A stretch of DNA of 64,000 nt from Piscinibacter sp. XHJ-5 (GTDB lineage Bacteria; Pseudomonadota; Gammaproteobacteria; Burkholderiales; Burkholderiaceae_C), in the NCBI RefSeq assembly GCF_029855045.1, contig NZ_CP123228.1:2170001-2234000 (forward strand). Reading direction: 5' to 3'. Positions 8,199 to 20,192 of this stretch are shown one piece after another. A program made the position numbers and the translations under genes. Each line of letters opens with the position of its first letter. Positions within the stretch are counted from its first letter, which is position 1. Below the pieces are notes generated by a model. The model worked only from the letters and a program-made list of their open reading frames with translations. It was not told the origin of the DNA and did not search any database.

Positions 8199-9008
8199 AT
8201 GACAGCAGACTACACGCGCTACCGTTACCTGGACATCCGGCTGGAGCAAGGCATTGCCACGCTGGTGCTCAATCAGCCTGACAACCGCAATGCCATCCAT
8301 GCCGAGATGCACGCGGAACTGGAGCAGGTCTGGCTCGACCTGGCGGCTGATCGCGAGGTCAACGTCATCGTGCTGACGGGAGCCGGCAAGATGTTTTCCG
8401 CCGGCGGCGACATCAAGCGCATGGTGAATCGCTACGGCACCGACGAGGGCTGGCAGTTCTCTATCGACACGCCGGCATCCACCAAGCGGCTGTTCCAGAA
8501 CATCCTGGAGGTCGAGAAGCCCATCATTGCCGCCATCAACGGGGATGCGGTCGGGCTGGGCGCGACGCTGGCACTCTTCGCCGACTCGACCATCATTGCG
8601 GAGTCGGCGAAGTTCGGCGACTCGCACGTGAAAGTGGGGCTGGTCGCGGGCGACGGCGGGGCGGTGATCTGGCCGATCCTGGTCGGTCCGAACCGCGCGA
8701 AGGAGTTCCTGATGCGCGGCAAGCTCATGAGCGGCAAGGAGGCCCATGAGATGGGCCTGCTGAACCACGTCGTGCCGGCCGAAGAAGTCATGGCGCGCGC
8801 CATGGAGATCGCCCGCGAGCTGAACGAGCTGCCCCCGCTGGCGATTCGCTGGACCAAGCTGTCGATCAACAAGTGGATCAAGCATCAGCTCAACCTGATC
8901 CTGGACGCGTCGATCGCCTACGAGATGCTGTCCATCAACTCGCGCGACCACCACGAGGCCGCGAAGGCCTTCCTCGAGAAGCGTCCGCCAGTCTTCCAGG
9001 GCAAGTGA
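8199..9008 (+). CDS. Enoyl-CoA hydratase/isomerase family protein
   Basis: A 269-residue crotonase-fold protein. The oxyanion-hole segment GAGKMFSAGGDIKRM and the second segment GDAVGLGATLALFAD are present. The start at ATG 8199 gives a normal family N-terminus, whereas the open frame extends further upstream without similarity. It shares an uncommon signature (VKVGLVAGDGGAVIWP) with the hydratase at 49452, which marks them as paralogs of one subfamily in the two catabolic clusters. Its stop overlaps a possible GTG start of the next gene. It would hydrate or isomerise an enoyl-CoA. Confidence 0.9.
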   Translation: MTADYTRYRYLDIRLEQGIATLVLNQPDNRNAIHAEMHAELEQVWLDLAADREVNVIVLTGAGKMFSAGGDIKRMVNRYGTDEGWQFSIDTPASTKRLFQNILEVEKPIIAAINGDAVGLGATLALFADSTIIAESAKFGDSHVKVGLVAGDGGAVIWPILVGPNRAKEFLMRGKLMSGKEAHEMGLLNHVVPAEEVMARAMEIARELNELPPLAIRWTKLSINKWIKHQLNLILDASIAYEMLSINSRDHHEAAKAFLEKRPPVFQGK

Positions 9009-9019
9009 AGGCGGGCGTC

Positions 9020-10186
9020 ATGGAAGCGAACACGCAGCAGCGCGATTGGAACGGGCTGTCGGACGAGGAATTCCGCGAAGTTGCAGCCGACTTCTTCGCC
9101 AGCCATGTGCCGCAACACCTGCGTCACCTGAGCCGTCGCCCGCGATGGGCGGAGGTCAAGGAGTGGTACCTCACGATGTCGAACCACGGTTGGCTGGTGC
9201 CGTCGTGGCCGAAGGAATGGGGCGGCATGGGGCTGTCGCAGTCGAAGGTGCTGGTGTATCTCGAAGAGCTGGAGCGCAGCGGCGCCCCGCGCGTCATGGA
9301 CCAGGGGCTGATGAACATCGGCCCGTTGTTGATCGCGCGAGGGACTGACGAACAGCGCCAGCGGTTCCTTCCGAAGATCTTGTCGGGCGAGCACACGTGG
9401 TGCCAGGGCTATTCGGAACCGAACGCGGGCTCCGACCTCGCCAGCCTGCGTACGGAGGCGCGCATCGAAGGCAACGAGTTCGTCATCAACGGCCAGAAGA
9501 TCTGGACCAGCGTGGCGTTCGACGCGAACCACATGTTCGCGCTCGTTCGCACCGACAAGACCGTCAAGAAACAGGCGGGCATCAGCTTCCTGCTGATCGA
9601 CATGCGCCAACCCGGCGTGACCGTGCGTCCGATCCGCAACATCGCCGGCCATGATGAGCTGTGCGAAGTCTTCCTCGACAACGCGCGGACGCCGGTCGCC
9701 AACCTCGTGGGCGAGCTGAACCGCGGCTGGGACATCGCGAAGGCCTTGCTGGGCTTCGAGCGCATCTGGTCCGGGTCGCCGCGGCAGTCGATGCTGGCGC
9801 TGCTGCGCCTGGAGAAACTCGCGCGCGCGAATGGGAAGATGGACGACCCCGTGTTCGTCGACAAGTACACCCAGGTCACGATGGATGTGCTCGACAGTGC
9901 GTCCGCCTACGAGCGCTTCGCGCAGATCATGCGCACCGGCGGCAGCTTCGGCTTCGAGGTGTCCATGCTCAAGATATGGGCCACCGAGACCTGCCAGCGC
10001 GTCACCGAGCTGATGGTCGAGGCGGCCGGCGACCTCGGCGCGCTCGGCGGCGAAGTGGACGTGGACGGCGAAGCCATCGACATCCTGTACCCCTTCCTCG
10101 ACTGCCGGGCCTTCACGATCTACGGCGGATCGAGCCAGGTCCAGCGAAACATCCTCGCCAAGAACGTGCTCGACCTGCCGGCCTGA
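9020..10186 (+). CDS. Acyl-CoA dehydrogenase
   Basis: A 388-residue FAD-dependent acyl-CoA dehydrogenase. The substrate/FAD motif YSEPNAGSDLASL and the downstream ING-QKIWTS segment are typical, and the C-terminal FAD contact YGGSSQVQRNILAKNVL is present. It introduces the alpha,beta double bond of beta-oxidation. The ATG at 9020 is used here. An in-frame GTG at 9005, overlapping the hydratase stop, could add five residues. It is followed 14 bp later by a second, divergent dehydrogenase, and such pairs often form a heteromeric enzyme. Confidence 0.92.
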   Translation: MEANTQQRDWNGLSDEEFREVAADFFASHVPQHLRHLSRRPRWAEVKEWYLTMSNHGWLVPSWPKEWGGMGLSQSKVLVYLEELERSGAPRVMDQGLMNIGPLLIARGTDEQRQRFLPKILSGEHTWCQGYSEPNAGSDLASLRTEARIEGNEFVINGQKIWTSVAFDANHMFALVRTDKTVKKQAGISFLLIDMRQPGVTVRPIRNIAGHDELCEVFLDNARTPVANLVGELNRGWDIAKALLGFERIWSGSPRQSMLALLRLEKLARANGKMDDPVFVDKYTQVTMDVLDSASAYERFAQIMRTGGSFGFEVSMLKIWATETCQRVTELMVEAAGDLGALGGEVDVDGEAIDILYPFLDCRAFTIYGGSSQVQRNILAKNVLDLPA

Positions 10187-10200
10187 GAAAACACATCACC

Positions 10201-11349
10201 ATGCAGGACATATCGATCACGGAAGCCGCGGAACAGCAGCAGATGCTGCGCGACAGCGCTGCCGACTTCGTGCGCGGCCGCGCCGACATGAAGCAGCTGC
10301 GCGAGCGTCGTGGCACGCTGCCCGGCTACGACCCCGCGACGGTGCAGCAGATGGGCGAACTGGGCTGGTTCGCCATCCTCGTGCCGGAGGCGCACGGCGG
10401 CCTCGGGCTCGCCCTGGCCGACATGGCCGTAGTGCTCGAGGAACTCGGCAAGGGATTGATGGCCGAGCCGATGGTTGCCGCGGTGCTCGCGGCTCGCGTT
10501 CTGGAACACGGCACGAACGAGGCGTTGAAAGCGCGGCTCTTGCCCGGCCTCGCGGACGCGAGTGAACGTCCATGCGTCGCATGGCAGGAGGACCGGGGAG
10601 GTGTCGATGCGGCGGGCTCAGAAACGCGAGCGCGCATCGAAGGCGATGCGGTCGTGCTCACCGGCACGAAGCGTTTCGTGGCCGGTGCGGCCGGTGCGTC
10701 GGGCTTCATCGTGTCGGCGCAGTCCGATGCCGGCCTGAGCCTCTATTGGGTCGACGCAGGCGCGTCCGGTCTGTCGGTGCGCCACGAATGGCGGGCCGAC
10801 GAGACGCCTTCGGGCGTGGTCGAGCTGGCCGGCGTTCGCGCCAGCGCGTCGGATGCGCTGTGCGCGCCCGGCGCCGAGTCGCACGCGGCGCTCGAGCGTG
10901 CCGTGGAAGAAGCGGCCGTGATGGCCAGCGCCGAGATGCTCGGCGTGATGGAAGCGGCGCTGCAGATGGCCCTCGGCTACATGCGCACGCGGGTGCAGTT
11001 CGGCAAGCCGATCGGAAGCTTCCAGGCGCTGCAACACAAGACCGCAGACCTGTATGTGCAGCAGGAGCTCTGCCGAGCTGTGCTCGACGATGCGGTGCGT
11101 GCGCTGGACGGCCGCGTGCCGGCGCAGGAGCGCAGCCAGCTGGCGAGTCGTTGCAAGGCGCGCGCCAGCGACGCCGGGCTGCGTGTGACGCGGGAGGTGA
11201 TCCAGTTGCACGGCGCGATCGGCTTCACCGACGAATACGACGCCGGGCTGTACCTCAAGCGTGCGCTGGTGCTGTCGGCTTGGCTCGGCAACGCCAGCGC
11301 ACACCGCCGCCGGTTCGCGCAGCTCGCGCGGGGTGCGGTGGCGGCCTAG
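10201..11349 (+). CDS. Acyl-CoA dehydrogenase, second subunit type
   Basis: A 382-residue dehydrogenase homolog. It has RMRTRVQFGKPIGSFQ-type sequence (YMRTRVQFGKPIGSFQALQ) and QLHGAIGFTDEY, characteristic of the family C-terminal domain, but a weaker middle region than its neighbour at 9020. This pattern (one regular and one divergent dehydrogenase side by side) is found in heterotetrameric acyl-CoA dehydrogenases of steroid catabolism (FadE-type pairs), so a joint enzyme is plausible but inferred. The same pairing recurs at 44267-46849. It is the last gene of the rightward operon. Confidence 0.88.
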   Translation: MQDISITEAAEQQQMLRDSAADFVRGRADMKQLRERRGTLPGYDPATVQQMGELGWFAILVPEAHGGLGLALADMAVVLEELGKGLMAEPMVAAVLAARVLEHGTNEALKARLLPGLADASERPCVAWQEDRGGVDAAGSETRARIEGDAVVLTGTKRFVAGAAGASGFIVSAQSDAGLSLYWVDAGASGLSVRHEWRADETPSGVVELAGVRASASDALCAPGAESHAALERAVEEAAVMASAEMLGVMEAALQMALGYMRTRVQFGKPIGSFQALQHKTADLYVQQELCRAVLDDAVRALDGRVPAQERSQLASRCKARASDAGLRVTREVIQLHGAIGFTDEYDAGLYLKRALVLSAWLGNASAHRRRFAQLARGAVAA

Positions 11350-11364
11350 ACGCTGCGGCAGCGT
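11350..11364. terminator. Small hairpin between convergent genes
   Basis: The 15-bp sequence ACGCTGCGGCAGCGT forms a 7-bp stem in the 20-bp gap between the dehydrogenase (+) and the acyl-CoA synthetase (-). There is no U tract. It could weakly terminate both transcripts. Confidence 0.4.
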
Positions 11365-11369
11365 GCCCG

Positions 11370-13526
11370 TCAGTCAGGCATGCGCTTCGCGATGAGCGCA
11401 TCCACCGCCACGAGGCGGGGTCCTGCGCAAATCAGCGGATTGACGTCGAGTTCCGAGATTCGGTCGCGCTGGTCGTGTGCAAATTCTGAGATGCGTGCGA
11501 CCACGTCGGCCAGGCGGTCCAGGTCGACCGGCTCCGCGCCTCGAAAGCCTTGCAAGGCCCGCTGGCCTCTCAACTCGGCCAGCATCTCGCGCGCTTCCTG
11601 CCGGTCCACGGGCGCCAGGCGAACCGCCGTGTCCTGCATCAACTCGACGAACACGCCGCCGAGACCCACGACCACCAGCGGTCCGAAATGCGGATCCACG
11701 CGCGCGCCGACCATGATCTCGGTACCCCGCGGCACCATGGGCTGCACCAGCACCCCGTTGATACGCGCCGGCGGCGACACCGCTTGCGCCCGTTCCATGA
11801 CCGCGTCGAATGCGCTTCGCACATCGTCCTCGGTGCTCAGGTCCAGCCGGATGACGCCGGCCTCGGTCTTGTGCGGGATATCGGGCGATTCCACTTTCAT
11901 GGCCACCGGCCATCCGCAAGAACGCGCGGCGGCCACCGCCTCTTCGGCGTTGCGGGCCAGTGCGTCGCGCACCACGGGTATGCCATAGCGCGCAAGGACC
12001 TCCTTGCCCTCGCGTTCGGTGAGCGTGGAGTTTGGCGCCAGGTCGATCAAGTTCCCGGCGAGTTCTTTCGAATCCGGACTCGACAGGCGGCTGATGTGTC
12101 GGCCTTCGTGCGCCAACCAGTCGGCGCGTCGGTGCCATGCGGCCAGCGCGGTCATGCAGTGCCGCATCGAGCGAAAGAGCGCGACGTGCTCGTTGTGCTG
12201 CGCCTCGGTCGCTCCGGGTCCTTCGAGGTGCTGCGTCAGCCACACCGCGCAGGAGATCTTGCCGTGATCCGCCGCGGCCCGGCCCATGATCTCGATCCGT
12301 GCCGTGGCCGGTGCGTAGGCGTAGGTGTGCGGCACGACCAGTGCGCCGTACTGCGGGTCGGCCATCAAGGCTTCGAAGCACTCGTGCAGATGCTCTGGCG
12401 TCGACAGGACTTGGGCCGTCATGTCGCACGGGTTGCCGGGCGCACCGTACTCCGGGATGAGACGCTCGAGCACTGCCATCGTCTGGGGCGCGGGATGCGG
12501 AAGGTCGATGCCCCCTTCCTCCGCCTTGTCGGCCAGCATGATGCAAGCGCCGCCCGACACGGCGGCCACTGCCACGCCGCGGGCCTTGGGCGCGGCTGCC
12601 TTGGCGAAGAAGGCGCAGGTGTCCAGCAGTGCTTCCACCTCGTCGACCATGACGATGCCGGCGCGCGCGAAGGCAGCGCGATAGGCGGCCTGCGAGCCCG
12701 CCACCGAGCCGGTGTGAGACACCGCGGCCTGCGCGCCTCGCTCGCTGGTGCCGAGCTTGTGCACCACCAGCGGCTTGCTCGCCTCGTGACACAGCTTTGC
12801 GGCCTGCAGGAAGCGTTGAGGATCGGCCATGCCTTCGAACAGGCAGGCCACGGCCTTGCATCCGGGGTCCGCCGCGAGGTAGGCCACCTGGTCGGCGACG
12901 TCGACGTCCACGGCGTTGCCGCAGGTGAGCATGTGGCTGAGCGACAGGCCGTGCTCCTGCGCCTGCGCCAGCGCCGCGCCGACCGCACCCGACTGGCTCA
13001 CCAGCCCGATTGCCCCGTGTCGCGGGGCGCCCTTGAACGAGGCCGTGCCGAAGGTGCCGATGACGCCGAGCCCGTAGTTCATGTAGCCCACGCAGTTCGG
13101 CCCGACGATGCGCATGCCTGCCTCGCCGCCGAGCGCGAGCAGGCGCTGCTGCAACTGCGCGCGCTCGGCCTGCCCGGTCTCCGCATAGCCGGAGGCGAAG
13201 ACGACCACGCCGCCGACGCCGCGGCGCGCGCATTCGGCGACCACCGATTCCACCGCATCGCGAGGCACGGCCACGAAGACGCAGTCCGGTGTCTCGGGCA
13301 GCGCGGCGATGGACGGATAGCAGAGTGTCTCGCCGATACGGTTGTACTTGGCGTTGACCATGTACATCGATCCCGCGAAGCCGCCGAGCCGGGCGATGTT
13401 GGCCCAGGTGATCGATCCGAAGGACGCGGGATTCGTCGAGACGCCGACCACGGCGATGCTGCGCGGCGCGAACGTGCGCTGGAGCTCGTCGGGCCGGTAG
13501 AGGGCGCGGGAAGCGACGGCGGTCAT
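11370..13526 (-). CDS. NDP-forming acyl-CoA synthetase (fused alpha/beta, ATP-grasp)
   Basis: A 718-residue protein with a CoA-binding domain (RSIAVVGVSTNPASFGS, residues about 20-150), a succinyl-CoA-ligase-like domain (LVSQSGAVGAALAQ), the phospho-accepting His region (AVSHTGSVAGS) and a C-terminal ATP-grasp domain (LTEREGKEVLARYGIPVVRD). This is the full acetate-CoA ligase (ADP-forming)/Pat-like architecture without a GNAT domain. It would make an acyl-CoA with formation of ADP and phosphate, a second mode of acid activation beside the AMP-forming ligases here. It lies just upstream, in the same direction, of the Bug gene at 13543. Confidence 0.9.
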   Translation of the reverse strand: MTAVASRALYRPDELQRTFAPRSIAVVGVSTNPASFGSITWANIARLGGFAGSMYMVNAKYNRIGETLCYPSIAALPETPDCVFVAVPRDAVESVVAECARRGVGGVVVFASGYAETGQAERAQLQQRLLALGGEAGMRIVGPNCVGYMNYGLGVIGTFGTASFKGAPRHGAIGLVSQSGAVGAALAQAQEHGLSLSHMLTCGNAVDVDVADQVAYLAADPGCKAVACLFEGMADPQRFLQAAKLCHEASKPLVVHKLGTSERGAQAAVSHTGSVAGSQAAYRAAFARAGIVMVDEVEALLDTCAFFAKAAAPKARGVAVAAVSGGACIMLADKAEEGGIDLPHPAPQTMAVLERLIPEYGAPGNPCDMTAQVLSTPEHLHECFEALMADPQYGALVVPHTYAYAPATARIEIMGRAAADHGKISCAVWLTQHLEGPGATEAQHNEHVALFRSMRHCMTALAAWHRRADWLAHEGRHISRLSSPDSKELAGNLIDLAPNSTLTEREGKEVLARYGIPVVRDALARNAEEAVAAARSCGWPVAMKVESPDIPHKTEAGVIRLDLSTEDDVRSAFDAVMERAQAVSPPARINGVLVQPMVPRGTEIMVGARVDPHFGPLVVVGLGGVFVELMQDTAVRLAPVDRQEAREMLAELRGQRALQGFRGAEPVDLDRLADVVARISEFAHDQRDRISELDVNPLICAGPRLVAVDALIAKRMPD

Positions 13527-13542
13527 TTCGCAGGACCTGTCG

Positions 13543-14508
13543 TCACATTGTCTTGGCCAGGCCCAGGCCGGTGATCACCGGCGCCCACTTGTCATATTCG
13601 GACTGGATGAATTTGGCCAGGTCTTGCGGTGTGCCGCCTCGACGCACCACGCCCAGCTGGCTGGCGCGTGCCGCGAAGTCCTTGTCCTGGAGGATCTCGT
13701 TCACGGTCTTGTTCAGCTTCTCGACGGTGGCAGGCGGCGTGCCGGCCGGCGCCATGAGGCAGTACCAGGCGTACGCGTTGAGCGGGTGGCCGGCCTCTTG
13801 CAGGGTCGGCACGTCTGGCAACTGCTCCAGGCGCTGGTCGTCGAAAACGCCCAGCACGCGCAGCTTGCCGGCCTTCACGTGCGGCAACACGATCGTGAGC
13901 GAACCGACGTACACATCCACCTGGTCGCCCAGCAGCGCCTGGATCGCCAGGGGGTCGCCGGTGTAGGGGATGTGCGTCGTCTGGATGCCCGCCGCCTTGT
14001 CGAGCATCACGCCGGCGAGGTTGGTGATGTTCCCTGCGCCGACCGAGGCGCGATTGACCTTGCCCGGATTGGCCTTGGCATAGGCGACATAGTCCTTCAG
14101 CGTGCTGAACGGCGCACTGGCGCGCGCGATCAGGATGCTCGGCTGGTAGCCGATGTGCGACACCGGGGCGAAGTCCTTGGCGGGGTCGTACGGCATCTTC
14201 TGGAACAGCACGACATTGTTGGCCAGTGTGCTGTTGGAACCCATGAAGAGGGTGAGCCCGTCCGGCTTCGAGCGCGCCACGGCGTCGCCCGCGATCATGC
14301 CGGACGCGCCGGGCTTGTTCTCCACGAAGGTGTGGATGCCGCGCTTGGTCATTTCTTCGGCGATCAGCCTCACATAGCCGTCAGTGGCTCCGCCGGCATT
14401 GAACGGCACCACGATCCTGGTGATGTTGGCTTGCGCGAAGGCGCCGATACCGGTGACGAGAAGGGCGCTGCCGCACAGCACGCGGCGCATGAGGCGGGTG
14501 AACGACAT
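13543..14508 (-). CDS. Bug/TctC-family periplasmic receptor
   Basis: A 321-residue Bug receptor. The start at 14508 gives a signal peptide (MSFTRLMRRVLCGSALL...GAFAQA) followed by RIVVPFNAGGATDGYVR. It is clearly paralogous to the receptor at 2953 (both share the NAGG(G/A)TD-YVR segment and an AEEMTKR stretch). It is transcribed ahead of the NDP-forming synthetase with a 16-bp gap, so uptake and activation of the same acid is a fair inference. Upstream lies a GAAC-N3-GTTC palindrome at 14619-14629. Confidence 0.92.
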   Translation of the reverse strand: MSFTRLMRRVLCGSALLVTGIGAFAQANITRIVVPFNAGGATDGYVRLIAEEMTKRGIHTFVENKPGASGMIAGDAVARSKPDGLTLFMGSNSTLANNVVLFQKMPYDPAKDFAPVSHIGYQPSILIARASAPFSTLKDYVAYAKANPGKVNRASVGAGNITNLAGVMLDKAAGIQTTHIPYTGDPLAIQALLGDQVDVYVGSLTIVLPHVKAGKLRVLGVFDDQRLEQLPDVPTLQEAGHPLNAYAWYCLMAPAGTPPATVEKLNKTVNEILQDKDFAARASQLGVVRRGGTPQDLAKFIQSEYDKWAPVITGLGLAKTM

Positions 14509-14618
14509 GGCGATGCAGTCTCCGAATTGGAATAGGTCCGGCAACGTGTTCCGTCGCGTGGAAAGGCGTCCATTTTGGGCGGGAAATGCCATGATCGTCA
14601 AGCGTTGTTCCGTTTGAC

Positions 14619-14629
14619 GAACCTGGTTC
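14619..14629. promoter_or_regulatory. GAAC-N3-GTTC palindrome upstream of Bug gene
   Basis: GAACCTGGTTC lies 111 bp upstream of the Bug start codon, in the gap before the small HTH gene. It fits the consensus GAAC-N3-GTTC found at 33700, 49390, 57149 and 57224. Its distance to the Bug start leaves room for a promoter and leader. Confidence 0.4.
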
Positions 14630-14666
14630 CATTTGCAAGAATCACTGTCAACCCGGGTGCACGACC

Positions 14667-14864
14667 ATGAATCTGGAAGAAGCGGTACACCGGCCCGCCG
14701 CGCAGCGAGGCCGTGCCGCCAGACAGTGGATTCCGATCGACTGGATCGCTGTGGAGCGGGACTATCGGGCCGGCGTCCTGTCGCTGCGCGAAATGGCGCA
14801 CAAGCATCGGTGCTCACACTCCTCGATCGCAAATTTTGCAGAGCGGCACGGTTGGATGCGCTGA
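14667..14864 (+). CDS. Small helix-turn-helix protein, phage terminase small-subunit-like remnant
   Basis: A 65-residue open frame starting at ATG 14667. The core IDWIAVERDYRAGVLSLREM followed by HKHRCSHSSIANFAERHGW looks like the N-terminal HTH found in phage terminase small subunits and related prophage proteins (pattern: IDW-x3-E-x-YRAG-x-LS-x-RE). Those proteins are usually more than twice as long, and here the frame stops right after the HTH, so it is probably a truncated prophage remnant. There are no other phage genes around it. It sits at the left edge of the mosaic region, just before repeat copy A. Confidence 0.5.
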   Translation: MNLEEAVHRPAAQRGRAARQWIPIDWIAVERDYRAGVLSLREMAHKHRCSHSSIANFAERHGWMR

Positions 14865-14978
14865 ACGCGAAGGCGCGCCTCGACTGATCCACCTCTCGTC
14901 GCCAGGGAGTCCCGTATGCGTCACACGGTCATCGCTCCTTTCGACAGGGCGGATCGAGCTCAGGCATTTCGCCGCGAC

Positions 14979-15727: not shown

Positions 15728-16876
15728 CTAGGAAAGTCCGTCGTGGCTGGCTTGGCGTAGCAACTGCAGGCGGATCATCTCGGCCATCTCGCGCTGCGAG
15801 TCGAGCGGTGCCGACGAAAAGTCGCACATTGGATCTGCTGAGCCGCCCAGACCGAACAACTCGTCGATGGAGCCGATCGAGGTTTCCTGCGGTAGAGAGG
15901 CCGGATCGGGGCTCGCCGGCGCGAGCGGACCGGGAAGTGGCATCGCGAAGGGATCGAAGTCGTCCGGCAGGCGGCTGCCCGATTGTCCGGCTGGCGCGCT
16001 GGGACGTTGCGGAGGCGAAGGCGTCACCGACGGCAGGGGCGTCTCAGCAGGCGCTGGGACCGGCGCCAGCAGATCGGCGAAAGAATCCCCCTCTGCGGCG
16101 GCCCTCGCCGCCTCCCATCGCACCCCAATGACGTAGTCGCCAATATGAAGCACGTCACCGGCTGCGATCGGCGCTTGCTCGCCTGTGCCGAGCGCCCGGC
16201 CGTTGAGGGCGATCGCGCTGGCGCCGCGGTTGACGACGCCGTACCTGCCCCCGCCAAACACCACGGCCGCCTGGACCCGCGAAATCCTGCGCTCGATGTC
16301 AGGCAGCACGAGTGAATTGCTGTTGGATCGACCGATGGTGCCGCCGCGTTCGTCGAACGAAACCTCCACAGGTTGCGCCAGCGGTAGTCCGTTGCGAGCA
16401 AGCAGGGTCAGGATCGGACGCCTCGCTCCCCCCAGGAACTCCGGTCGCGGGAGATCGTCATCTTCGCGGGAACGGCCCGCCGGCACTGCGGTGGTTAGCG
16501 CGCGAGGCGGCGCCATTTTGGAGTGAGTCGCGTCGGCGAGCGCCGCGAGGTCAATCCACTGGTATTGGTCCAGGCCGGGTGGCAGGGGGGTCTTGTCCAG
16601 CAGGACGGGCACCAGGCGCTTTCCGGTCGCCAATGCTGCCCGATATTCGCGCTCCACTTCGCGCGAATCGCTCGAATGCCGGCACCAGAACAGGACTACG
16701 TACGTCGCCGTCCGCAGCGCCTCCTCGAGCTTGCCGCGCCACAACTCGCCCGGTTCGATGCTATCGAGATCGAGAAACACCATGCCGTGACCGCCAAGTC
16801 GCAAGAGCTTGATGATCGGGACAACAATGGGCTCGTCATGCCGGCTGTACGACACGAACACTTCGAATTCGGGCAT
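15728..16876 (-). CDS. TIR-FHA fusion protein (TagH-like FHA)
   Basis: A 382-residue protein. Residues 3-112 form a bacterial TIR domain: FEVFVSYSRHDEP (box 1), FLDLDSIEPGELW, and S71-x-x-V-x-x-E77, where E77 fits the catalytic Glu of TIR NADases. Residues about 152-255 form an FHA domain: GGTIGRSNSNSLVLPD, RRISRVQ, LNG. The pThr-binding Arg and Ser are kept, but the usual His of SxxH is Gln. The FHA and the following LPDDFDPFAMP and SIDELFGLGG motifs resemble type VI secretion protein TagH, whose long C-terminal domain is absent. No T6SS genes are nearby. The start at 16876 has a GGGAGAGAG ribosome site; longer in-frame starts exist. A nucleotide-hydrolysing defence or signalling role gated by a phosphoprotein is inference. 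Confidence 0.8.
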   Translation of the reverse strand: MPEFEVFVSYSRHDEPIVVPIIKLLRLGGHGMVFLDLDSIEPGELWRGKLEEALRTATYVVLFWCRHSSDSREVEREYRAALATGKRLVPVLLDKTPLPPGLDQYQWIDLAALADATHSKMAPPRALTTAVPAGRSREDDDLPRPEFLGGARRPILTLLARNGLPLAQPVEVSFDERGGTIGRSNSNSLVLPDIERRISRVQAAVVFGGGRYGVVNRGASAIALNGRALGTGEQAPIAAGDVLHIGDYVIGVRWEAARAAAEGDSFADLLAPVPAPAETPLPSVTPSPPQRPSAPAGQSGSRLPDDFDPFAMPLPGPLAPASPDPASLPQETSIGSIDELFGLGGSADPMCDFSSAPLDSQREMAEMIRLQLLRQASHDGLS

Positions 16877-17385
16877 CGGCTCTCTCCCATGGGCACCGAC
16901 CACCTGCATGCTACCGACGATGGCCCGATGGATCCAGACGCTGAGTTTCGGAAGCTTCATCGGACGATCGCCACGACGCGAGCCCAGCGTCAGCAAGGTG
17001 TCGGCGGCGCCAGTTCGTGACCAACGGATGCAGCCGTTCGGCCCCGAATGTGTCGCGATCGTCGATCGGCATCAGCGAACGACCGCTGTCACCTTGACGT
17101 GGGCGAAGGTCAAGTGCCGAGGTAGACGGGTCGTTCGCCGGGAAAACCGCCGCCGGCTCCTATGGGTCGGTCACGCTCGGTCAGCCGCCGGATCTGGCAG
17201 ACAGGAATGCGGCCCCGAGCGGCGCTCAACGGATGAGCGACAGGTTGTTGCCAGTCAGCCGTCGTAGGAACGCGCGAGTCGGTCGCCGGGGCCCGGCCAC
17301 TTCCAGTCCCTCAAGCGGCGGGAAATTCACGTCGGCAACGACCGCTTTCAAGGGCGGCAGACATTGCTCGGGGTCCGCGCACGAT
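16877..17385. other. Intergenic stretch without recognisable gene
   Basis: About 500 bp between the TIR-FHA start and the transposase fragment. No frame with family similarity was found. Short motifs such as GAACGACCGCTGTC (about 17081) and CAACGACCGCTTTCAAGGGC (about 17337) resemble the decayed GACCGCTTT-type intergenic repeats of related genomes. The leftmost part would carry the promoter of the minus-strand TIR-FHA gene. Confidence 0.35.
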
Positions 17386-17625
17386 TGGGCAGAACCCGCG
17401 ACGCTTGCAGCTGAAGGCCAGCAGCTTGTCGTGGCCGCACTCGCCGCAGCGCAGCCTCAGGAAGCCGTGCGCCAGGATGCCGCACTCAAGGAAGGCGTCG
17501 AACTCGACCTTGATGAACCGCGGCAGCTCCGATCTGGTACTGGCCTCGGTGTGCGCGATGAAGCTGGCCGCATGCTGCTGCACCAGGCGGTACAGCGTGG
17601 TCTGCTCGGGGCGGATGGGCTTGCC
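17386..17625 (-). pseudogene. IS91-family transposase, N-terminal fragment
   Basis: About 80 codons on the minus strand match the N-terminal zinc-binding region of IS91-type transposases: PEQTTLYRLVQQH, LPRFIKVEFDAFLECGILAH, LRLRCGECGHDKLLAFSCKR and RGFCP. The similarity ends abruptly after FCP, where the family normally continues SCGARRM, and the catalytic Tyr region is absent. Upstream the frame runs antisense into the P-type ATPase fragment, so both ends are broken. It is evidence of past mobile-element activity in the mosaic region. Confidence 0.8.
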
Positions 17626-18083
17626 GGCGACCGAGGTGGTTCCGGGCGACATCGTGCGACTCACCCTTGGGGCCGCGGTGCCGGCGGACGCGACCATGGT
17701 CACCGGCGCGGCGATGATCGATTCATCCATGCTCACGGGCGAGTCGCTTCCTGTCGAGGCGGGCCTCGACACTCCGTGCCCGGCTGCTTGCGGCGTTGCT
17801 GATCGCGGCTGGATACTCGATGGCGCTGCCTGCCAGCGACCTGGTTCGGCTAGCGCTCACGGCCCTGCTCGCGAGCATCCCGGTCGCACTGCCGGCGACT
17901 TTCACTTTGTCCGCGGCCTTCGGTGCGCGCGTCCTCGCGCAGCACGGCGTGCTGCTGACGCCGTTGTCGGCTGCGCACGAGGCCGCCGCAATGGATGTGC
18001 TGTGCGCCGACAAGACCGGAACGCTGACGCGTAACGCGCTGGAGGTGGTCGACGTGGTGCCACCCTACCGACTTGTCCCTTGA
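17626..18083 (+). pseudogene. P-type (proton-efflux type) ATPase fragment with internal deletion
   Basis: The first part encodes ATEVVPGDIVRLTLGAAVPAD and SSMLTGESLPVEAG (actuator domain, TGES motif). After about 17764 the similarity shifts frame to ASIPVALPATFTLSAAFGAR, then LSAAHEAAAMDVLCADKTGT. The phosphorylated Asp of DKTGT is present, followed by a stop at 18083. The transmembrane region between TGES and IPVALP is mostly missing, and the N-terminus, nucleotide-binding domain and C-terminal membrane helices are gone. The wording of the motifs fits plasma-membrane H+-ATPase-like enzymes of bacteria. It abuts the IS91 fragment at 17625, so a rearrangement probably broke it. Confidence 0.85.
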
Positions 18084-18251: not shown

Positions 18252-20192
18252 ATGCCTTTCACGTCCATCGCGCGCGTCCTCGTAGGCGCCGCACTCGCGC
18301 TGTCACTCACCGCGGCAAACGCCGCCGTCAGCGTACGAACCATCCAGAGCAGCGGCATCGCGCGGCTGCAGGCGTTGCCGATGGCCGGCGGCGGCCTGCA
18401 GTCGCCCGAGCTCTCACCCGCCTTCGCCGGCCGCGAGGAAGACGAAGGCGTCGCCGCCCACGGCGGCAAGAGCGACGAGGCGCGCGACAAGAAGGCGCTG
18501 CGCGCGGCGACCAAGCGGGTCGTCAACCGATCGATCGCAACCGCACGCGGCCTCGGCGTCGGCATCGCGCCGGTCGGTGTCCAGCAGGGCGACGCGCTGA
18601 AGACCTGGGACGGGCTGCGCTTCTTCGACCAGCGCTTCGCCAACGGCGGCAATCAGTTCAGCGTCGAACCTCCCGACCAGGCGCTCTGCGTCAGCGAGCA
18701 GTTCGTCGTCGAGTCGGTCAATGACGTCATCCGCTTCTACGACAAGAGCGGCGTGCCGGTGAGTGGCGTCATCGACCTCAACACGTTCTACAGCTACCCG
18801 GCGGCGATCCAGCGCACGAATCCGCCGGTCTTCGGGCCGTTCATCACCGACCCAACGTGCTACTACGACCCGGATGTCCACAAGTTCTTCCACGTCGTCC
18901 TGACGCTCGACGTCAACGAGAAGACTGGCGCCTTCACCGGCGACAACCACCTCGATCTCGCCGTTAGCAACGACTCCGATCCGCGCAACGGCTGGACAAT
19001 CTACCGGATCCCGGTGCAGAACACCGGCCTGCCGGCCGACACGCCGAACCATCCGAACTGCCCGTGCATCGGCGACTATCCGCACATCGGCGCCGACAAG
19101 TACGGCATCTACCTGACGACGAACGAGTTCCCGTTCGCCGGCGGCTTCAACGCGGCGCAGATCTACGCGCTGTCGAAGAAGCAGCTCGCGGCGAGCGCTG
19201 CCAACGTCAATCTCGTTCTGTTCGACACGAGCGAGTTCCGCTTCCAGGGCAATCCTGGCTTCACGGTCTGGCCGGCAGTCTCGCCGAGCCAGGACTACGA
19301 GACGCGCTTCGGCGGCGTCGAATACCTGATGAGCTCGGTCGCGGTATTCTCGCCGTCGGGCAACGGCAACCGCATCCGCGTTTTCGCGCTGATGAACACA
19401 AGTGCGATCGACAGCGATCCGTCACAGATCTCGCTGGTCGACACCGCCGTGCACGTCAGCCTCTACGGCGTTCCGCCGCCGGCGGCACAGAAGCGCGGGC
19501 CGGCGCCGCTCGGGGAGTGCCTGAACGACCGCTCGATCAACCTCGGCGGCGGCTTCATTGGATGCTGGCAGCTCTTCGTCGACCCGCCGGCGCCGACCGA
19601 GCTCGTCCCAGAGCTCGTCGACACCAACGACTCGCGCATGCAGCAGGTGTTCTTCACGGGCGGGCGCCTGTACGGCGCGCTCGACACGCCGGTCAACATG
19701 CCGGGCGGACGCCAAGCAGGGATCGCCTACTACGTGATCCGCCCGTATCCGCAGGCCGGCTCGCTGGCCGCGGTGCTCGAGAACGAGGGCAAGTTCGGCG
19801 TCGCCGGCAACAGCGTCAGCTACCCGGCGATTGCCGCGCTGCCCGACGGACGCGGGATCATCTCGTTCACGCTGGTCGGGCCGGACTACTACCCTTCGGC
19901 GGCGTACATCCGTTTCAACGCCAGCGGTCTGAACGGCAACGTTCGCGTCGCCGGCGCCGGCCTGGGCCCGGAGGACGGCTTCAGCGGCTACGTGTCTCTC
20001 GGCGATTCGACCGTTGCGCGCTGGGGAGACTACGGCGCCGCGGCGCTGTCGCAGGGCACGTTCTGGATCGCGTCGGAGTACATCGGTCAGGTCTGCACAT
20101 TGCAGGAATTCCTGGCGACGAACTTCACGTGCGGCGACACGCGCGGGGCGTTCGGCAACTGGTACACGCGGATCTCCGCGGTGGCGCCTTGA
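18252..20192 (+). CDS. Secreted protein of unknown function
   Basis: A 646-residue protein with a clear signal peptide (VLVGAALALSLTAANA, cleavage near residue 24) and a GAGGAG ribosome site. I do not recognise the family. The mature part looks globular and extracellular: it has Tyr/Asn/Gly-rich segments such as GDNHLDLAVSNDSDP, a paired-Cys segment PNHPNCPCIGDYPHIG and a C-terminal Cys pair (VCTLQEFLATNFTCGD), suggesting disulfides and possibly a beta-propeller-like fold. The gene is intact and complete, unlike the fragments on both sides. Weak hairpin sequence (CCGCTC...GAGCGG, 20202-20221) follows its stop. Confidence 0.7.
   Translation: MPFTSIARVLVGAALALSLTAANAAVSVRTIQSSGIARLQALPMAGGGLQSPELSPAFAGREEDEGVAAHGGKSDEARDKKALRAATKRVVNRSIATARGLGVGIAPVGVQQGDALKTWDGLRFFDQRFANGGNQFSVEPPDQALCVSEQFVVESVNDVIRFYDKSGVPVSGVIDLNTFYSYPAAIQRTNPPVFGPFITDPTCYYDPDVHKFFHVVLTLDVNEKTGAFTGDNHLDLAVSNDSDPRNGWTIYRIPVQNTGLPADTPNHPNCPCIGDYPHIGADKYGIYLTTNEFPFAGGFNAAQIYALSKKQLAASAANVNLVLFDTSEFRFQGNPGFTVWPAVSPSQDYETRFGGVEYLMSSVAVFSPSGNGNRIRVFALMNTSAIDSDPSQISLVDTAVHVSLYGVPPPAAQKRGPAPLGECLNDRSINLGGGFIGCWQLFVDPPAPTELVPELVDTNDSRMQQVFFTGGRLYGALDTPVNMPGGRQAGIAYYVIRPYPQAGSLAAVLENEGKFGVAGNSVSYPAIAALPDGRGIISFTLVGPDYYPSAAYIRFNASGLNGNVRVAGAGLGPEDGFSGYVSLGDSTVARWGDYGAAALSQGTFWIASEYIGQVCTLQEFLATNFTCGDTRGAFGNWYTRISAVAP

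What the first reader, a model, noticed from the sequence alone, without database searches (positions are those of the whole stretch)
15728..16876. TIR domain fused to a TagH-like FHA domain, outside any type VI locus
The protein joins an N-terminal TIR (catalytic-type Glu77 kept) to an FHA domain with pThr-contact Arg and Ser, plus TagH-like LPDDFDPF and SIDELFGLGG segments. FHA domains read phosphothreonine and bacterial TIRs degrade NAD, so a kinase-gated NADase would be a new type of defence or effector device. It is intact, has a good ribosome site, and lies among mobile debris, the usual place for defence genes. A degraded His (Q202) in the FHA is a caution.
Basis: partly seen in the sequence, partly recalled or inferred. 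Interest (0 to 1): 0.85.

Follow-up and report, generated by a model that had tools for sequence, protein, structure and literature searches.

The report
Split TIR domain carrying phosphothreonine-reader insert
A bacterial gene encodes a likely NAD-destroying TIR domain whose last helix appears to have been moved to the far end of the protein, with a phosphothreonine-reading module like that of a type VI secretion regulator inserted where many relatives carry a membrane anchor, so it may be a new kind of switched cell-death or defence protein.

Summary
The gene is intact: minus strand, ATG 16876, stop 15728, 382 aa, TIR plus TagH-type FHA. The pairing recurs in five distinct proteins (window, P0002, P0005, P0121, P0133), all keeping the FHA Arg and Ser and the TIR Glu. 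The 'degraded' Q202 is ordinary for TagH (60 of 70), but a loop Asn usual in TagH is lost in four of five.
New: the FHA and TagH-like linker seem to sit inside the TIR. In the predicted structure the C-terminal helix (356-378) takes the place of the TIR's last helix. Relatives carry a two-span membrane hairpin there (43 of 66 with exactly two spans), and a model of one also puts its C-terminal helix in the TIR. So this looks like a split-TIR family with an exchangeable insert, the hairpin here replaced by the front part of TagH. The genome has one T6SS with kinase, phosphatase, TagF and TagH, 3.2 Mb away.
Best reading: a soluble TIR NADase recruited to a T6SS-type phosphoprotein complex. NADase activity, phosphothreonine gating and T6SS docking are inferred.

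The parts
15728..16876 (-). TIR-FHA gene, 382 aa plus stop
   Evidence: ORF; Pfam TIR_2 and FHA over cut-off
16882..16888 (-). ribosome-binding-like GGGAGAG, 5 nt before the ATG
   Evidence: read directly
16523..16876 (-). residues 1-118: TIR domain without its last helix
   Evidence: Pfam match 6-112, reaching profile position 110 of 122; model pLDDT 83-96 in ten-residue blocks
16646..16648 (-). Glu77, aligned to the catalytic Glu of SARM1
   Evidence: phmmer alignment (that this Glu of SARM1 is the catalytic one is recalled); invariant in the 38 family sequences of alignment A6
16109..16429 (-). residues 150-256: TagH-type FHA domain, inserted in the TIR
16328..16330 (-). Arg183, pThr-contact Arg
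   Evidence: kept in 5 of 5 TIR-FHA proteins and 70 of 70 TagH (the pattern used allows R or K)
16280..16282 (-). Ser199, pThr-contact Ser
   Evidence: kept in 5 of 5 and 70 of 70 (the pattern used allows S, A or T)
15947..15970 (-). LPDDFDPF, TagH linker motif 1
   Evidence: pattern in 52 of 67 TagH-like proteins, 0 of 1340 shuffles
15842..15871 (-). SIDELFGLGG, TagH linker motif 2 (short helix 337-340 in the model)
   Evidence: pattern in 51 of 67, 13 of 1340 shuffles
15743..15811 (-). residues 356-378: C-terminal helix that completes the TIR fold (alphaE)
   Evidence: pLDDT 94 and 92 for residues 361-370 and 371-380; structural alignments run to residues 373-382 in all 32 TIR rows among the 50 shown
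17386..17583 (-). IS91 transposase zinc-binding fragment (debris upstream)
   Evidence: PF14319 E 1.9e-10
17621..17761 (+). P-type ATPase fragment (debris)
   Evidence: PF00122 E 3.1e-14

Best explanation
It is a soluble member of a family of split TIR proteins. The TIR fold is made of residues 1-118 plus the C-terminal helix 356-378; between them sits an exchangeable targeting module. Many relatives carry a membrane hairpin there; this one carries the front part of TagH (FHA plus two linker motifs) and lacks the C-terminal domain of TagH. Most likely working: the TagH-like module docks the protein on a phosphothreonine-marked T6SS-type complex (target of the PpkA-like kinase), docking several copies side by side lets the TIRs assemble, and the assembled TIR cleaves NAD+ to stop the cell's growth, as a damage or infection response. 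Shown by computation: both domains, their recurrence, retained Arg/Ser/Glu, TagH character of the insert. Supported by models and topology: the split TIR (about 0.8). Inferred: NAD cleavage, pThr gating, T6SS docking, biological role.
Against: The loop Asn of the FHA is Ser here and kept only in P0002 of the five. The residue four before the catalytic Glu is Glu, where NADase TIRs usually have Trp (recalled); of 63 family TIRs read, 33 have Phe, 20 Glu and 2 Trp there. The gene is not linked to the T6SS, and its FHA is closer to other bacteria's TagH than to its own genome's. The fusion is very rare: own genome only, in surveys of 299, 399, 369 and 398 genomes, with at most 5-7 candidates scored per genome. 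In the P0140 search 11 of the 50 rows are not TIRs but related folds such as DNPH1 that also end in such a helix. 9 of 66 relatives have one span and 14 none at the same threshold, and by eye L071 joins a normally placed last helix to two hydrophobic stretches.
Confidence: 0.45

Rival explanations
1. The insert is a docking module only: the TagH linker motifs (and an FHA fold no longer reading phosphothreonine) hold the TIR at the T6SS or a TagH partner, with no phospho-switch.
For: P0003 and P0004 keep linker motifs without FHA; loop Asn lost in 4 of 5 TIR-FHA proteins; the FHA branches of the four TIR-FHA proteins in the tree are long, 1.15-2.25 against a median of 0.076.
Against: Arg and Ser of the pThr pocket kept in 5 of 5 despite fast evolution.
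Confidence: 0.25
2. A stand-alone antiphage or abortive TIR that took up an FHA to sense phage-encoded or host kinase activity, unrelated to the T6SS.
For: An FHA-bearing kinase is part of a phage-defence module (KKP; passages of PMC11341870); rare, patchy spread; mobile debris beside it; a hairpin relative on a Methylomagnum plasmid sits among GTPase, toxin-antitoxin and restriction-modification annotations.
Against: The linker motifs are TagH-like and I know of no role for them outside the T6SS; no defence neighbour among the ten ORFs scanned with Pfam; PADLOC gives only weak TIR similarity, best E 5.2e-6.
Confidence: 0.15
3. A non-enzymatic TIR adaptor or scaffold in T6SS regulation, competing with TagH for TagF or phospho-TssL.
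For: A TagH-like module without the C-terminal domain could act as a decoy; Trp before the catalytic Glu is missing.
Against: Catalytic-type Glu invariant across the 38 family members of A6, of which 7 have a TagH part.
Confidence: 0.1
4. A T6SS cargo effector.
For: TIR plus T6SS-derived segment.
Against: Only TIR and FHA over cut-off, no PAAR, VgrG, MIX or Rhs domain in the protein; no such gene recognised by Pfam among the ten ORFs scanned beside it; the shared part is a cytoplasmic regulator, not a spike part.
Confidence: 0.05

Closest known systems
TagH / Fha (TIGR03354, PF20232), T6SS-associated FHA protein
   Same: FHA, Gln after SRx, LPDDFDPF and IDxLFG linker motifs
   Different: No T6SS_FHA_C domain; FHA and linker lie between the parts of a TIR; not in a T6SS locus; scores 68 bits against a cut-off of 120.25
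TIR NADases (SARM1 TIR, AbTir, SPARTA TIR-APAZ, TIR-STING)
   Same: TIR fold, catalytic-type Glu; close structural matches to the first three
   Different: Last TIR helix displaced to the C-terminus by an insert of over 200 residues; the sensor is an FHA, not a nucleotide receptor, Argonaute or ARM domain. TIR-STING also has an insertion in its TIR, but a small strand pair in the CC loop (passages of PMC9402430)
Bacterial TIR proteins with two membrane spans (P0006, P0139, P0140, WP_221067486.1 of Methylomagnum)
   Same: Same TIR subfamily, C-terminal helix, same insertion site
   Different: Insert is a membrane hairpin instead of FHA plus linker
KKP kinase-kinase-phosphatase defence (PMC11341870, passages seen)
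   Same: FHA used in phosphorylation-based defence
   Different: FHA is fused to a kinase there; no TIR is mentioned in the passages seen

Membership tests
TIR-domain NADase effectors | TIR fold | tested here: met
TIR-domain NADase effectors | catalytic Glu in helix alphaC | tested here: met
   Glu77 by alignment to SARM1, invariant in the 38 sequences of A6
TIR-domain NADase effectors | Trp four residues before the Glu (recalled feature) | tested here: not met
   Glu73 in that place; I do not know it to be strictly required
TIR-domain NADase effectors | NAD+ cleavage | not testable with these tools
   needs assay
TagH / Fha of T6SS | FHA with TagH linker motifs | tested here: met
TagH / Fha of T6SS | C-terminal T6SS_FHA_C domain | tested here: not met
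   no match; the genome's two PF20232 matches lie elsewhere
TagH / Fha of T6SS | reaches TIGR03354 cut-off | tested here: not met
   68 against 120.25 bits
TagH / Fha of T6SS | encoded in a T6SS locus | tested here: not met
phosphothreonine-reading FHA | pocket Arg and Ser | tested here: met
   5 of 5
phosphothreonine-reading FHA | loop Asn | tested here: not met
   Ser in the window protein; Asn in 1 of 5 TIR-FHA, by eye on the loop strings, against 53 of 61 TagH by a loose pattern
phosphothreonine-reading FHA | binds a pThr peptide | not testable with these tools
   needs assay
Thoeris (ThsB/ThcB) | reaches ThsB or ThcB model cut-off | tested here: not met
   PF08937 15.6 against 21.2 bits; NF058526 14.5 against 220
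Thoeris (ThsB/ThcB) | ThsA-type partner gene beside it | tested here: not met
   no such Pfam match in the ten flanking ORFs scanned
T6SS cargo effector | PAAR/VgrG/MIX/Rhs delivery domain | tested here: not met
   only TIR and FHA domains over cut-off; cargo effectors need not have one

The most novel reading that the evidence does not exclude
A phospho-switched split TIR: phosphothreonine binding (or T6SS docking) by a module inserted next to the last TIR helix, a helix used in TIR assembly, directly gates NAD destruction, linking the T6SS threonine-phosphorylation alarm to cell suicide; and the wider family is a set of TIRs with a plug-in site for sensors or anchors.
Probability: 0.2. Interest if true: 0.85.

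Novelty: new variant of a known kind. Interest (0 to 1): 0.62.

Why it matters
TIR effectors are known to be switched by nucleotides, guides or receptor domains. A TIR with an FHA placed inside its fold would be a phosphorylation-switched version and would tie cell-death enzymes to the T6SS kinase pathway. The split-TIR layout with an exchangeable insert gives a simple, testable rule for a family of otherwise unexplained bacterial TIR membrane proteins.

Tried and rejected
Degraded FHA: rejected as to Q202, since Gln is the TagH norm in the sample (54 of 61; 60 of 70 with later hits); that sample was gathered by similarity to the query and is biased.

Fusion with the genome's own TagH: not supported, its FHA groups elsewhere, but branches are long and only 102 columns were used; P0133 was found later and is not in that tree. 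One origin of the TIR-FHA proteins: neither shown nor rejected (AU p 0.26 for the five, 0.42 with the two linker-only rows, 0.45 with P0135 and P0136 as well); the quick tree put these nine in one weak clade (SH-aLRT 83), the careful tree did not.

Relatives in genome contigs, viral contigs and phages: none; the window's own genome may be left out there. Plasmids: 10 records, none with both domains. Neighbours of the other four TIR-FHA genes were not seen: they come from metagenome sources, and scans of metagenome contigs are capped at 0. Congeneric empty site: the gene at 18252-20192 has no match in the 4 other genomes of the genus searched, and window 9000-14900 gives only short scattered DNA matches in them. 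T6SS loci of three genomes with TagH close to the profile (G416, G355, G706) showed no TIR gene by a crude motif tag. Foldseek itself ranks FHA structures first and the first TIR only at rank 43. The 'viral' fold library was not searched (one search failed).

Print (open-licence PMC only): no paper with 'TIR-FHA' or three like phrases. Broader listings showed no such fusion by title or abstract start. A TIR survey (PMC7075850) has no 'FHA' in its main text; a conflict-systems paper (PMC7159879) names FHA and TIR apart in the passages seen. For a split TIR: no paper holds all six terms; of 8 papers with a phrase only TIR-STING bears on it, with another, small insertion.

Candidate caps: one search scored 7996 candidates and listed 120 of 169 hits; one search scored 7998; 7800. 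Span counts by hydropathy: two, one, none = 43, 9, 14 at 1.6; 46, 6, 14 at 1.4; 37, 14, 15 at 1.8 (n = 66). In an outside set (11 of 369 genomes; TIR ORFs of nine loci read) the two with two spans (L069, L070) seem, by eye, to have the last helix displaced, and the seven with one or no span over the threshold seem to have it in the usual place; L071 among these has a second hydrophobic stretch by eye, which goes against a strict rule.

Full report
Observation. The gene lies on the minus strand, 15728-16876 with stop, 382 aa, with ATG at 16876 and GGGAGAG five bases upstream; no sigma-70-like site was seen on its strand nearby. Pfam finds TIR_2 (78 bits, residues 6-112) and FHA (33 bits, 180-246), both over cut-off; the TagH model TIGR03354 matches residues 156-314 at 68 bits, under its cut-off. 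Codon-position G+C of the open frame (0.71, 0.51, 0.75 for the longer TTG-start version) is gene-like, with a lower third position than most long ORFs of the window. Upstream of the gene lie an IS91 transposase fragment and a P-type ATPase fragment; the nearest long gene on its other side encodes a TctC receptor.

Recurrence. Searches of a 5.8-billion-protein collection gave four more TIR-FHA proteins: P0002 (44% identity over 98%), P0005, P0121 and P0133. P0121 has only TIR in its precomputed Pfam list; its FHA is read from the motif and from 51% identity to P0005 along the length. All five keep the pocket Arg and Ser; the position after SRx is Q, H, Q, H, Q. In 70 TagH-like proteins it is Q in 60 and H in 10, so Q202 is no decay. 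The loop Asn, N in 53 of 61 TagH by a loose pattern, is kept only in P0002. Two relatives, P0003 and P0004, have a TIR 84 and 81% identical to this one and the two TagH linker motifs but no FHA. P0002 lacks motif 1, and P0121 and P0133 have at most a remote form of it.

Rarity. In surveys of 299 genomes of the family, 399 of the order, 369 of the class and 398 of the phylum (the window's genome counted in each; sets may overlap; E limits 1e-20 to 1e-27; 5-7 candidates scored per genome) only the window's own genome had a match over both domains. None of 10 plasmid records had both; phages and viral contigs gave none.

The split TIR. AlphaFold2 on 46 sequences gave TIR 1-118, FHA about 150-256 and a C-terminal helix 356-378, pLDDT 94 and 92 for residues 361-370 and 371-380 (mean 79.0, pTM 0.50). 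In the structural alignment 32 of the 50 rows shown are TIRs or TIR-bearing proteins, the other 18 FHA domains; all 32 run to model residues 373-382 with 120-133 residues aligned, more than the 118 available in front, so the C-terminal helix stands where the last TIR helix belongs. The Pfam TIR match stops at profile position 110 of 122. Of 66 related TIR proteins, 43 have exactly two hydrophobic spans after the TIR (threshold 1.6), followed by a 19-72 residue tail; two spans bring the tail back to the TIR's side. A tail-helix pattern, written from these tails, is shared by this protein and some hairpin relatives (12 of 66; 0 of 6600 shuffles); P0005, P0121 and P0133 do not match it. A model of hairpin relative P0140 (259 aa, pLDDT 82.4, 38 sequences) has a C-terminal helix at 233-257, and all 50 rows shown, 39 of them TIRs and 11 other folds of like build, reach into it. 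The two models share alignment members, so they are not fully independent. I conclude, with about 0.8 confidence, that the TIR is interrupted between its last strand and last helix by an exchangeable insert: hairpin in many, TagH front part in five, linker only in two.

T6SS link. The genome has one sheath gene and a T6SS cluster with IcmF, TagF, TagH, a PP2C and a Ser/Thr kinase with HAMP and a just sub-cut-off sCache match, 3.2 Mb from the gene; a second TagH away from that cluster lies at 3.86 Mb. The FHA of the window protein is nearest to TagH P0007 and P0010, not to its own genome's TagH, which lies in another supported group. In passages of PMC5995506, Fha binds phospho-TssL in Agrobacterium, PpkA acts through a threonine of Fha1 in Pseudomonas, and TagF binds Fha; any of these could be a partner. 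What the two linker motifs bind is unknown to me.

TIR chemistry. The nearest PDB sequences are SARM1 TIR. Glu77 aligns to its catalytic Glu (identity of that Glu recalled) and is invariant in 38 relatives. Against activity, the Trp that usually stands four residues earlier (recalled) is Glu here, as in 20 of 63 relatives. Close TIR packing switches NAD cleavage on in TIR-STING (passages of PMC9402430), and AE/BE contacts do so in enzymatic TIRs (passages of PMC8635717); the displaced last helix belongs to that AE surface (recalled naming), so an insert next to it is well placed to control assembly. This is inference.

Verdict. Observation confirmed; interpretation partly supported. I file it as a new variant of TIR effectors, not as a TagH and not as Thoeris. 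Function is inferred; confidence in the full mechanism 0.45.

Noticed in passing
G000:C1:3856.7-3857.8 kb (locus L008, 9714-10823): A second TagH (369 aa, FHA plus T6SS_FHA_C) stands beside a FecR-like gene although only one sheath gene was found in the genome, so it looks like an orphan TagH.
   Followed up: partly
L067 7971-8648 (Methylomagnum ishizawai plasmid pRS11DPr5): TIR with a hydrophobic hairpin-like stretch and C-terminal helix-like tail, near two GTPase genes, toxin-antitoxin genes and a short gene annotated as a type I restriction subunit.
   Followed up: partly
L063 4649-5359 and L064 4348-5505: Short TagH-like FHA proteins near a GroEL-like gene in two genomes, seen by motif; no domain scan was run on them.
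   Followed up: no
L065 4559-5572: A 337-aa TagH-like protein with SIDELFGL in what looks by eye like a T6SS locus, followed by a PP2C-like gene; may be a shortened TagH.
   Followed up: no
window 17311-18083: IS91 transposase and P-type ATPase fragments on opposite strands next to the TIR-FHA gene.
   Followed up: partly
window 18252-20192: 646-aa ORF with a signal-peptide-like start by eye, no Pfam match at E 0.01 and no match in the four other genomes of the genus searched.
   Followed up: partly
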